Below, piece after piece: positions 3,633 to 34,093 of a stretch of 37,738 nt of DNA. The notes under the pieces were generated by a model, which was given only the letters and a program-made list of their open reading frames with translations, was not told where the DNA came from and did no database searches. The stretch comes from a virus: IMG/VR virus record IMGVR_UViG_3300047319_000436, positions 1 through 37,738 of that record. One strand, 5' to 3'. Position numbers and translations under genes: made by a program. Every line of letters begins with the position of its first letter. The stretch's first letter is position 1.

Positions 3633-3653
3633 TTTGATATTTGAATAACGGCG

Positions 3654-4133
3654 ATGCCCAACGGTCCCGATTGGACAATTGAAGCCTATATAGCTCATAT
3701 CGAGGCGTTGCGTGACGCTGCACGGCAGTTTCAACTCGAACGTGATCTGCGGTATCAGGAGCGATTCGAAGCTCAGGAGAAGGCTCTACGGGTCGCCCTC
3801 GCTAATATCAATGACCAAGTTGCGAAAAGTGACCAGTCATATAATCTTCGGTTCGATCAGGTCAACGAATGGCGGCGAACTTACTCAGATCTTGTGACCG
3901 GCACAATGTTACGAAGCGAGATCGAACAGCGGTTCATATCGATAGAATCGAAATTTGAGCAGAGATGGGCGAGCAACGATTCTAAGATCGACGAGATCGC
4001 CGGCAGATTGGACCGCACGGATGGCAGGTCGGCGAGCTTGAGTGCGACAAAGGTCAATGTACTCGCCGCATTAGCAATTCTCGGGACGGTCGCCGGCATC
4101 ATTGGAACGATCGCAGCGATTCTTGGTAAATAA
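3654..4133 (+). CDS. Coiled-coil protein with C-terminal transmembrane anchor
   Basis: The 159-residue product is a long charged coiled coil (residues about 10-125; many Glu, Arg and Gln in heptads) ending in a hydrophobic, Gly/Ala-rich helix (about 136-157, VLAALAILGTVAGIIGTIAAIL). This tail-anchored architecture is common among phage proteins encoded next to holins. The following gene starts 9 bases later, after a good ribosome binding site. I infer a membrane or lysis role from topology and position only. Confidence 0.6.
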   Translation: MPNGPDWTIEAYIAHIEALRDAARQFQLERDLRYQERFEAQEKALRVALANINDQVAKSDQSYNLRFDQVNEWRRTYSDLVTGTMLRSEIEQRFISIESKFEQRWASNDSKIDEIAGRLDRTDGRSASLSATKVNVLAALAILGTVAGIIGTIAAILGK

Positions 4134-31370: not shown

Positions 31371-31440
31371 GGCGGGTTCGGGTATGGCATGTCAGGGTGT
31401 GTTTGGGCGAGGTTTGTTGTGTCGGGGCAGGCAAGGGGGA
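31371..31440 (+). repeat. Pentanucleotide array 1, 14 units of G(G/T)(C/T)NN
   Basis: From 31371 to 31440 every fifth base is G without a single break (14 of 14 units): GGCGG, GTTCG, GGTAT, GGCAT, GTCAG, GGTGT, GTTTG, GGCGA, GGTTT, GTTGT, GTCGG, GGCAG, GCAAG, GGGGA. The second base is G or T in 13 units, the third C or T in 12. The units are not copies of one another, so this is a patterned, non-identical array, G-rich on the coding strand. It fills the gap before the gene at 31490, in an operon where genes otherwise overlap. Confidence 0.75.
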
Positions 31441-31489
31441 TCGACGTCGCGGTCGTTAAAACGCAAATCAAAACTAGGAGGCCAAAATA

Positions 31490-32092
31490 ATGGCTACAGC
31501 TACAAAACAAGTCGTGGAGCAAATCGTGATTCCACGAATCGATATTGAGGTTATGACAATTCCGATCGCGAGCGATTCACCGTTGATCATGCACCGTTGG
31601 TCCGAAAAGGCCAAGAAAGAAATGCTAGATAAACAAATGAAAGTCGCTAAGAAAGGAAAGGATGCGAAAGATCCTGAAAAGGATTTTGAAAGTTCGATCT
31701 ATTACGACTCTGACGGCGACTTTGCGTTTCCGAGCGTGGCATTCAAGAACTGTGCAGTGAGTGCCTGTCGATTTACCGATGGGACCAAAATGACGGTCGC
31801 TCGCGGAGCATTTCATGTAACGGGCGAGTTCGTCAAGATTCTCGGCGACAAGCCGACGCCTCGCGAAGATATGGTTCGTGTGGGTATGGGAACCGCTGAT
31901 CTTCGTTACCGTGCCGAGTTCAAGAACTGGGCAGCCCAGATACAGATTTCTTTCAATAGACACGCTCTTTCGAAAGAGCAGATCGTCAATCTCTTTAACC
32001 TCGGTGGCTTTGGTGTCGGTATCGGTGAATGGCGACCGGAAAAGAACGGCCAGTTCGGCCGCTTTCACGTCGCAATGGAGGGCGAAGCATGA
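31490..32092 (+). CDS. Uncharacterised phage protein with RAMP-like glycine-rich end
   Basis: A strong AGGAGG site precedes the start. The 200-residue product has blocks familiar from uncharacterised proteins in many phage recombination regions: SPLIMHRWSEKAKKEMLDKQ, KDPEKDFESSIYY, FPSVAFKNCAVSACRF, TVARGAFHVTGE, REDMVRVGMGTADLRYRAEF, and GGFGVGIGEWRPEKNGQFGR. The last block resembles the Gly-rich loop of RAMP (Cas5/6/7-type) RNA-binding proteins in style. That is only a weak resemblance. It is bracketed, with the next gene, by two pentanucleotide arrays, and is a few genes upstream of the annealing protein. Confidence 0.65.
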   Translation: MATATKQVVEQIVIPRIDIEVMTIPIASDSPLIMHRWSEKAKKEMLDKQMKVAKKGKDAKDPEKDFESSIYYDSDGDFAFPSVAFKNCAVSACRFTDGTKMTVARGAFHVTGEFVKILGDKPTPREDMVRVGMGTADLRYRAEFKNWAAQIQISFNRHALSKEQIVNLFNLGGFGVGIGEWRPEKNGQFGRFHVAMEGEA

Positions 32093-32607
32093 TCTACACA
32101 TTCAAAAACAATAAATACAACGCCGACCCGCAAAAAGTTGCCGAAGAACTTGAGCGAATCCGAATTGAGAACGGCCAGCAGCTCCGAACAAAGGATGTTG
32201 TTGTTCAGGCATCGGCGGAAGATTCTCCACTTCATCCATGCTTTACATGGGACGACACGGCGGCGGCTCATAAATACCGAATGCATGAGGCCCGCGAGCT
32301 TATTCGTTCGATCGTCGTCCTTAAAAACGAAACTGACAAACCAACTCCGGTTTATTGGAACGTGATCATAAAGAAAACTGAAAACGCAACCGCTGAACAG
32401 TTTTATCAAAACACCACTGTGCTGATGAAGCGTCCTGAGGAGTACGCGTCCGCTTTACGTGGAATTCTTGGAGATTTGACGGCGGCCCAAGCCGGGCTTG
32501 AACAACTTCGGGCACTGGCTCCGAAGAAAGACAGGTCAAAGGTTAGCTCGGCATCTGATCATATTTCATCGGCCCGCCAAAGGCTCGATGAAATTGCACC
32601 CGGCTAG
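32089..32607 (+). CDS. Uncharacterised phage protein (DSPLHP-type), 172 aa
   Basis: The ATG overlaps the previous stop (ATGA). The product starts IYTFKNNKYNADPQKVAEEL and contains TKDVVVQASAEDSPLHPCFT, WDDTAAAHKYRMHEARELIR, and a C-terminal alpha-helical part. The DSPLH-x-x-F-x-WDD and YR-x-x-x-AR-x-LIRSI blocks recur in phage early regions without a known function. It appears as the obligate partner of the preceding gene here. The stop codon TAG is already part of the second pentanucleotide array. Confidence 0.65.
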   Translation: MIYTFKNNKYNADPQKVAEELERIRIENGQQLRTKDVVVQASAEDSPLHPCFTWDDTAAAHKYRMHEARELIRSIVVLKNETDKPTPVYWNVIIKKTENATAEQFYQNTTVLMKRPEEYASALRGILGDLTAAQAGLEQLRALAPKKDRSKVSSASDHISSARQRLDEIAPG

Positions 32608-32730
32608 GTTTGGCTGGGCAGGTATGGATGGGCGCGGCAGGGCACGGTGCGGTGCGGTGTGGCGCGGCTTGGCTGGCGGGCTATGGCGGGGAGGGCTAGC
32701 CAGGGCGAGGCTTGGCGGGGCGAGGCGAGG
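32602..32730 (+). repeat. Pentanucleotide array 2, about 26 units of GGYNN
   Basis: This array begins inside the stop codon of the preceding gene and runs to 6 bases before the next start. Units include GGCTA, GGTTT, GGCTG, GGTAT, GGATG, GGCGC, GGCAG, GGCAC, GGTGC (twice), GGTGT, GGCGC, GGCTT, GGCTG, and later GGCGA, GGCTT, GGCGG, GGCGA, GGCGA. A few one-base slips (4-base units near 32617, 32676 and 32700) shift the phase. Like array 1 it is strongly G-biased on the coding strand. Its last GAGG serves as ribosome binding site for the gene at 32736. Confidence 0.8.
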
Positions 32731-32735
32731 TTTTT

Positions 32736-33002
32736 ATGAATAATAAACAACAAACAACACGACGAGATTTTCTAAAGGCGGCATTATACGGAACCGTAGC
32801 GGGTGCGGTGATTGTGAATGGTCCGGTCATTGTGAGATCCACACCTTTAAGCAGGAGCATTGACCACATGCGTCAAGCCACAATCGCATTGCAGCAAAAG
32901 ATCAACGCAGCGAAGCCGGGCGATGTTCTGACTAGAGGGATGCAGCAATCACCCGAATCAATCGGCACCGCTATTTTGAAACAAGCGGGACGTAGAAGAT
33001 GA
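32736..33002 (+). CDS. Tat-signal protein whose C-terminus copies the tape-measure C-terminus
   Basis: The 88-residue product begins with a consensus twin-arginine signal (TTRRDFLKAALYG; Arg9-Arg10), followed by a hydrophobic stretch to about residue 33. Residues 47-88 align with the end of the tape measure protein: QATIALQQKINAAKPGDVLT against QATLALHKKIDIARPGDVLT, both continuing RGM, and ending IGTAILKQAGRRR against IGTGMLKAAGQRR. The DNA is diverged at synonymous positions. The protein would present a tape-measure-like tail at the periplasmic side of the inner membrane. It follows array 2 directly and overlaps the next gene by ATGA. Confidence 0.7.
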   Translation: MNNKQQTTRRDFLKAALYGTVAGAVIVNGPVIVRSTPLSRSIDHMRQATIALQQKINAAKPGDVLTRGMQQSPESIGTAILKQAGRRR

Positions 33003-33208: not shown

Positions 33209-33477
33209 TGACCATCGACGAAGCAATATTCATCGCGGTCAACATCGCTTATAAGCATTACGGCGGCAAGGGCGAAACAGAAGTCCGAATACTAAGAGAA
33301 AGGGAGCACAAAATAAAAAATGACGACGGCACTAGCAAAACAACAAGACGCAGCACAGACGCTCGAGCAGGTATTATTAACGGGCGATCTAAAAAATCTC
33401 AAACCGCAAGAGCGGGTACTTTATTACAAGCAAACCTGCGAAAGCCTCGGCCTCAATCCTCTAACAAAACCATTTGA
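33208..33477 (+). CDS. Small basic protein overlapping the annealing-protein gene
   Basis: ATG at 33208 (TGATG overlap) opens 89 codons: MTIDEAIFIAVNIAYKHYGG, then KGETEVRILREREHKIKNDD, and a basic, low-complexity end. The first 37 codons fill the gap before the annealing-protein gene and look coding; the last 53 lie inside that gene in another frame and look like run-on. The overlap of 158 bases is unusual here, so the gene may be real but with a fortuitous end. Confidence 0.4.
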   Translation: MTIDEAIFIAVNIAYKHYGGKGETEVRILREREHKIKNDDGTSKTTRRSTDARAGIINGRSKKSQTARAGTLLQANLRKPRPQSSNKTI

Positions 33478-34093
33478 ATACATTACGCTCAACGGCAAGT
33501 TGACGCTGTACGCTCGCAAGGACGCTACGGATCAGCTTCGCAAGGTCAACGCCGTATCAATCGAGAAGCCGGACATTCAGCAAATCGATGATCTGATCAT
33601 CGTCACCGTGTCTGCCCGAGGATCCGACGGCCGTATTGATTCGGACATTGGCGTCGTCAAGAAAAACGATATGCAGGGCAACATTGCCAACGCATTGATG
33701 AAGGCGGTCACGAAAGCTAAACGCCGCGTCACCCTGTCAATTTGCGGTCTCGGGATGCTCGATGAGACTGAGGTTGAAACGATAGCGAATGCCTACCCGC
33801 ATCCGGCGACAAAAGGGCAGTTGATCGAAGAAGCAAAAACTGCAGCCGAATCACAGACCGAATTAGAACACGTTGACACCGACGAACGCCTTTCCGATCT
33901 ATCCGAGATAAAGACCATCTGTAAAGAACTCATGGCAGCCGGTGACGATGTGCCGTGGATGACCAAGAAAGTCCTTTGCGATTACGCCGGCCAGTTGTTT
34001 GATATGGATGTTAAATCCAACGACGACCTGACGAAGGAACAGGTACGGGTATTAAAAGAGGATCTTCACGAGCGACTGGACGGGCTTCGCTAA
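33320..34093 (+). CDS. Probable single-strand DNA annealing protein (phage recombinase)
   Basis: The 257-residue product contains blocks common to phage recombination proteins that resemble the RecT/Rad52-like annealing group: ERVLYYKQTCESLGLNPLTK, PFEYITLNGKLTLYARKDAT, DQLRKV, IGVVKKNDMQGNIANALMKA, VTKAKRRVTLSICGLGMLDE. The C-terminal 80 residues are acidic and helical, with a final segment like a partner-binding tail. Such proteins bind and anneal complementary ssDNA in phage recombination and repair. The RusA resolvase follows. The exact family name is not certain. Confidence 0.65.
   Translation: MTTALAKQQDAAQTLEQVLLTGDLKNLKPQERVLYYKQTCESLGLNPLTKPFEYITLNGKLTLYARKDATDQLRKVNAVSIEKPDIQQIDDLIIVTVSARGSDGRIDSDIGVVKKNDMQGNIANALMKAVTKAKRRVTLSICGLGMLDETEVETIANAYPHPATKGQLIEEAKTAAESQTELEHVDTDERLSDLSEIKTICKELMAAGDDVPWMTKKVLCDYAGQLFDMDVKSNDDLTKEQVRVLKEDLHERLDGLR

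What the first reader, a model, noticed from the sequence alone, without database searches (positions are those of the whole stretch)
31371..32730. Candidate undescribed system: two uncharacterised genes bracketed by pentanucleotide arrays beside a recombinase
The pair at 31490-32607 is translationally coupled and belongs to families that, from memory, recur in phage early regions without assigned function. The first has a glycine-rich GIGEWRPEKNGQFGRF block that loosely resembles the nucleic-acid-binding loop of RAMP proteins. Together with two arrays and an annealing protein and RusA downstream, this looks like a module that makes or uses patterned G-rich nucleic acid, perhaps in recombination or in defence or counter-defence. 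The function is inference; the arrangement is seen directly.
Basis: partly seen in the sequence, partly recalled or inferred. Interest (0 to 1): 0.85.

Follow-up and report, generated by a model that had tools for sequence, protein, structure and literature searches.

The report
Phage RNA-guided VIPR system
This is a phage-carried VIPR system, a recently described relative of CRISPR in which repeats of the form GGYNN make guide RNAs whose NN letters pick DNA targets, so the finding is real but belongs to a kind reported in 2026.

Summary
The gene pair 31490-32607 and its flanking GGYNN arrays have the anatomy of VIPR (bioRxiv preprint held as PMC13142463): an ancestral RAMP protein (Vipr), an accessory protein (Vap), and guide RNAs whose NN dinucleotides read DNA with one skipped base. 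P0001's only PDB sequence match is the solved SUSP1 Vipr (profile E=6e-15). Its AlphaFold model (pLDDT 93) matches CRISPR Csm3/Cas7-type backbone proteins. The arrays are the three best GGYNN segments of the window, far above shuffles. Same-strand arrays occur in 62/66 and 53/55 distinct relatives. Most relatives keep the same Vap, which is unlike the Vap beside SUSP1-like Vipr. The window belongs to a branch with staggered guides (10-12 pentamers closed by a 4-nt GGCA). New here: guides of three relatives decode, only under the one-base-skip rule, to conserved codon motifs of other phages' vipr genes. One matches 23/24; another is perfect on 55 of 126 vipr genes, including this window's. No target was found for the window's own guides. 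New member of a known kind. The link to recombination is not supported.

The parts
31371..31430 (+). Array 1, upstream guide RNA: 11 G(G/T)(C/T)NN pentamers (NN = GG CG AT AT AG GT TG GA TT GT GG) closed by GGCA(G)
   Evidence: score 39.6 against shuffle maximum 19.8; parsed; the closing GGCA unit is the rule in relatives
31431..31489 (+). Leader after array 1 with ribosome-binding site AGGAGG (31476-31481); no unusual fold
   Evidence: Sequence; folding z-score 0.22 for 31426-31489
31490..32092 (+). vipr: single-RRM RAMP-type guide-RNA-binding protein, with glycine loop GIGEWRPEKNGQFGRF near the C terminus
   Evidence: SUSP1 Vipr 36pp_D: phmmer 4.2e-7, profile 6.4e-15 over residues 19-196; AF2 pLDDT 93.1; Foldseek top 50 all CRISPR RAMP chains; PHROG 4652
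31865..31888 (+). Predicted target inside the window's vipr gene (codons EDMVRVGM) of a guide carried by relative L009/L082 (Sphingomonas soli prophage): 16/16 under the one-base-skip rule
32089..32607 (+). vap: accessory protein, mixed alpha/beta with two long C-terminal helices, conserved SPLHxxFEWDDxxAAxxxR motif
   Evidence: Homologue in 81 of 88 relatives' loci; AF2 pLDDT 94.5; only weak winged-helix fold matches, E of about 0.04; PHROG 15946
32602..32620 (+). Array 2, first partial run: 3 pentamers + GGCA, overlapping the 3' end of vap
32621..32674 (+). Array 2, main guide: 10 pentamers (NN = AT TG GC AG AC GC GC GT GC TT) closed by GGCT
32675..32693 (+). Array 2, short run: 3 pentamers + GGAG, probably degenerate
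32694..32733 (+). Array 2, last run: 8 pentamers (NN = TA AG GA TT GG GA GA TT), running up to the next gene
   Evidence: (score 29.9)

Best explanation
The locus is a VIPR system of the staggered-array kind carried by a tailed phage. Shown here: the protein is a Vipr homologue with a RAMP fold, it is coupled to a conserved accessory gene, and both sides carry GKYNN arrays in the sense direction. Inferred from the published SUSP1 system and from relatives: the arrays are transcribed and cut into guide RNAs; Vipr subunits coat the guide, one subunit per pentamer, holding GGY and exposing NN; the NN pairs match double-stranded DNA two bases at a time with one base skipped, usually the codon wobble base; binding silences rival phages, prophages or their VIPR genes, and Vap helps. 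The window's own targets are unknown.
For: Only real PDB sequence match is SUSP1 Vipr. High-confidence RAMP fold. Arrays far above shuffles, correct strand. Association in 62/66 and 53/55 distinct relatives, with opposite-strand arrays in 3 and 0. Vap homologue in 81/88 loci. Arrays built of 10-12 units, in the published range of 9-16. Under a one-base skip, and not 0, 2 or 3, three relatives' guides hit vipr genes of other phages in frame; L011 against L136 matches 23/24, E of about 6e-7 for all 2.4 Mb held. Published anatomy and mechanism: PMC13142463.
Against: No target was found for the window's two main guides: full guides gave no exact match in IMG/VR nor guide 1 in GTDB genomes, guide 1 gave no match with up to 3 mismatches in 33 related records, and the 16-base core hits were not convincing. 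No structured 3' tail of the SUSP1 kind was seen. No sigma-70 promoter was recognised. Expression is untested. Array 2 is partly degenerate.
Confidence: 0.96

Rival explanations
1. The arrays are binding sites (RNA or DNA) that regulate the operon, as TRAP-like proteins bind spaced triplets, and the protein is an autoregulator with no guide function.
For: Arrays lie directly before and after the two genes in the sense direction. A ring or filament protein could read a 5-nt period.
Against: The NN positions are free and differ between arrays, and in relatives they decode to coding sequence of other phages' vipr genes at one skip spacing only. Many relatives carry several to dozens of different arrays, which regulation does not need. 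The fold is RAMP.
Confidence: 0.03
2. The module serves phage recombination, with arrays as annealing or Holliday-junction substrates for the neighbouring RusA and putative annealing protein.
For: RusA lies about 1.4 kb downstream.
Against: The annealing-protein label has no family support. In relatives the constant partners of vipr are vap and the arrays, and in Saal, UmaThurman, Cy-LDV1 and LESphi2 the annotated neighbours are repressors, excisionases and regulators.
Confidence: 0.01
3. The window's VIPR is a decaying remnant: vipr and vap still read through, but array 2 has lost phase and the guides have no current target. (This concerns the state of the system, not its kind, and can be true together with the best explanation.)
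For: Short 3-unit runs and non-GGCA closers in array 2. No target found.
Against: Both genes are intact with conserved motifs, array 1 and the main run of array 2 have normal lengths, and short runs also occur in relatives with rich arrays. Unsampled hosts and rivals explain missing targets equally well.
Confidence: 0.15

Closest known systems
VIPR of Escherichia phage SUSP1 (type II; PMC13142463, PDB 36pp)
   Same: Homologous Vipr over nearly its whole length (profile E=6.4e-15), vipr + vap pair, guide arrays on both sides, GGY/NN code
   Different: Vap of this branch shows no sequence relation to the Vap of wV8 (a SUSP1-like phage used as stand-in) or LESphi2. Arrays are staggered runs closed by GGCA rather than a repeat tract plus structured tail. 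GTY is common at the GGY position.
VIPR types with staggered arrays of overlapping vrRNAs (PMC13142463, fig. S18, mentioned in the text)
   Same: Consecutive guides with a phase slip between them
   Different: The figure and type number could not be read here, so assignment to a numbered type is untested
Class 1 CRISPR backbone proteins (Csm3, Cas7, Cmr subunits)
   Same: RAMP fold and glycine loop
   Different: No cas genes, no CRISPR array, low sequence identity (7-14%), smaller single-domain protein
VIPR-like loci of Gordonia phages ODay and UmaThurman, Mycobacterium phage Saal and Cyanophage Cy-LDV1
   Same: Same Vipr branch, homologous Vap and GGCA-closed arrays
   Different: About 26-44% identity to the window Vipr, different guides; all annotated as hypothetical proteins

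Membership tests
VIPR | Vipr protein of the ancestral RAMP lineage | tested here: met
   SUSP1 Vipr is the only real match; RAMP fold
VIPR | Minimal two-gene locus, vipr plus vap | tested here: met
   ATGA-coupled pair; Vap homologue in 81/88 loci
VIPR | Flanking arrays of 9-16 GGY/NN pentamers | tested here: met
   Runs of 11 and 10 pentamers
VIPR | Carried mainly by phages or proviruses | tested here: met
   The window is a virus record with terminase, portal, head, tail and lysis genes
VIPR | Target recognition with one skipped base | tested here: inconclusive
   Met for guides of three relatives; no target found for the window's own guides
VIPR | Guide RNAs expressed and bound to Vipr | not testable with these tools
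   Needs RNA sequencing and pull-down
VIPR type II (SUSP1 / P. fulva) | Structured 3' tail on each guide RNA | tested here: inconclusive
   Sequence after array 1 folds no better than shuffles (z = 0.22); in relatives a run is usually followed directly by the next run
VIPR type II (SUSP1 / P. fulva) | Vap of the SUSP1 kind | tested here: not met
   Profile of this Vap does not find the wV8 or LESphi2 Vap, so I do not file it as type II
CRISPR-Cas class 1 | Cas operon and CRISPR repeat-spacer array | tested here: not met
   No cas gene found in the families searched; repeats are 5-bp units; the single Rfam CRISPR match lies inside vipr below its gathering score
RecT/Red-type annealing module | Annealing protein of a known recombinase family | tested here: not met
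   33320-34093 has no recombinase match in Pfam, PHROGs, NCBIfam or PDB sequences; a distant relation is not excluded

The most novel reading that the evidence does not exclude
In this staggered branch, some guide RNAs are anti-VIPR weapons aimed at codons for the most conserved Vipr motifs (EDMVRVGM, the G-loop, MLDKQMKKA). Because the skipped base falls on the wobble position, one guide reads through synonymous variation and hits rival vipr genes broadly, while the carrier's own vipr escapes by amino-acid changes in the motif. The L009 guide matches 55 of 126 distinct vipr genes perfectly, with 44 different wobble strings, but its own gene only with 3 mismatches. [quoted passage not shown] the motif-level breadth and the self-escape are what would be new.
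Probability: 0.5. Interest if true: 0.68.

Novelty: new member of a known kind. Interest (0 to 1): 0.5.

Why it matters
VIPR is proposed to be the forerunner of CRISPR and a small programmable DNA-binding system. This locus was flagged from raw sequence by its arrays and glycine loop alone. It extends the staggered branch to a phage with no close relative in the phage collection searched. The relatives give an independent check, from a branch with a different Vap, that the one-base-skip code holds, and suggest that VIPR genes are themselves targets in phage-phage conflict.

Tried and rejected
Targets of the window's guides: exact full-length decoded patterns in IMG/VR and, for guide 1, GTDB genomes; guide 1 with up to 3 mismatches in 33 related records; nine-unit cores gave none; eight-unit cores gave 18 stretches each, roughly chance level by my estimate of the collection size, with 2-6 mismatches over the full guide. 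Rfam including hammerhead families: nothing reliable. Promoters and terminators: not above shuffles. Vap against PDB: no significant fold. Vap genes as guide targets: none above shuffles. Recombination role: rejected for lack of support. I could not obtain a taxon for the window; megablast of 14000-37738 against named phages found nothing.

Full report
What is there. The pair 31490-32092 and 32089-32607 overlaps by ATGA. A two-strand scan for G-(G/T)-Y-N-N repeats puts three segments at the top of the whole window, all on the + strand and all in the reported interval: 32616-32675 (43.8), 31371-31430 (39.6), 32689-32733 (29.9). The next is 12.2, and the best of 60 dinucleotide shuffles is 19.8. 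Allowing 4-nt units, array 1 is 11 pentamers plus GGCA and array 2 spans 32602-32733 in four runs.

What it is. [quoted passage not shown] The tests here agree. P0001 has one PDB sequence match, SUSP1 Vipr 36pp (4.2e-7). A profile of 52 relatives gives 6.4e-15 over residues 19-196, with the next, unrelated, chain at 0.085. The AlphaFold model is confident (pLDDT 93.1), and the 50 best Foldseek matches are CRISPR backbone RAMPs, mostly from type III and VII complexes. Invariant columns fall in the glycine loop (G177, G179, R182, G187, G190) and in D137, R139, R141, W147.

Association. Of 66 distinct relatives from the first search, 62 carry a same-strand array and 3 an opposite-strand one. In a second set of 55 new distinct loci, 53 have one within 1.2 kb and none has an opposite-strand array. 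A Vap homologue lies in 81 of 88 loci.

Array architecture. In this branch successive guides run head to tail. A run of typically 10-12 pentamers ends with a 4-nt unit, GGCA in 363 of the slips tallied and 746 of 1022 in the larger set, so each guide is one base out of phase with the last. The preprint mentions staggered arrays with overlapping vrRNAs; I take this to be that kind, but could not read its figure. The Vap here is not detectably related to the Vap of wV8 (a SUSP1-like phage) or LESphi2, so I do not call it type II. Gordonia phages ODay and UmaThurman, Mycobacterium phage Saal and Cyanophage Cy-LDV1 carry the same branch with homologous Vaps.

Testing the code. I parsed guides from all loci and asked whether their NN letters match vipr genes at 0, 1, 2 or 3 skipped bases. 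With 363 guides there were 3 strong hits at one skip and none at the others; unit-shuffled guides gave 0 to 0.13 on average. With 665 guides the result was again 3 at one skip and none elsewhere, with shuffles at 0.3 to 0.5. All three hits are in frame on the coding strand, with the skipped base at the wobble position. The L011 guide reads MLDKQMKKARQM of L136 at 23/24, a gene fetched only after that guide had been flagged. The L058 guide reads a G-loop. The L009 guide (Sphingomonas soli prophage) reads EDMVRVGM, perfectly in 55 of 126 distinct vipr genes with 44 different wobble strings, among them this window at 31865-31888. The carriers' own genes match worse (3/16, 11/28 and 7/24 mismatches for L009, L058 and L011), although for L011 and L058 many other vipr genes also match poorly, so self-escape is only suggested. 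Caveat: three guides is a small number, and the eight-unit L009 match alone would be borderline after correction for 665 guides. The L011-L136 match is strong on its own (E of about 6e-7 against 2.4 Mb).

What is not known. No target was found for the window's own guides. No SUSP1-type tail was seen. Vap has a confident model (pLDDT 94.5) but only weak winged-helix resemblance, so a DNA-binding role is inferred from the preprint's description of other Vaps. Expression, RNA binding and silencing are all inferred from SUSP1.

Verdict. The functional guess (patterned G-rich nucleic acid, RAMP loop, defence or counter-defence) was close, but the system has been described, so the locus is a new member of a known kind. 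The most interesting residue is the hint of wobble-blind, motif-directed anti-VIPR guides.

Noticed in passing
L095:3119-3442 (Gordonia phage UmaThurman gp40): The annotated 'hypothetical protein' gp40 lies inside a GGYNN guide array and its protein is just the translated repeat; other deposited phages may have the same false gene.
   Followed up: partly
L094:2259-2316 and 3652-3709 (Escherichia phage wV8): The depositors marked a direct repeat (DR_4) on both sides of the vipr homologue; it sits at or beside GGTNN arrays.
   Followed up: partly
window 32736-33002: 88-aa protein with a twin-arginine (TAT) signal, between array 2 and the early genes; NCBIfam TAT domain above its cut-off. Unusual place for an exported protein.
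   Followed up: no
   Followed up: no
L069:4157-5730: One relative carries an array parsed into 39 runs over 1.6 kb, the largest guide set seen; its targets would be a good test of the code.
   Followed up: no
L184:4265 against L177: A non-vipr guide match: 16/16 under the one-base-skip rule on the minus strand, E of about 6e-4 for all DNA held, so possibly chance.
   Followed up: no
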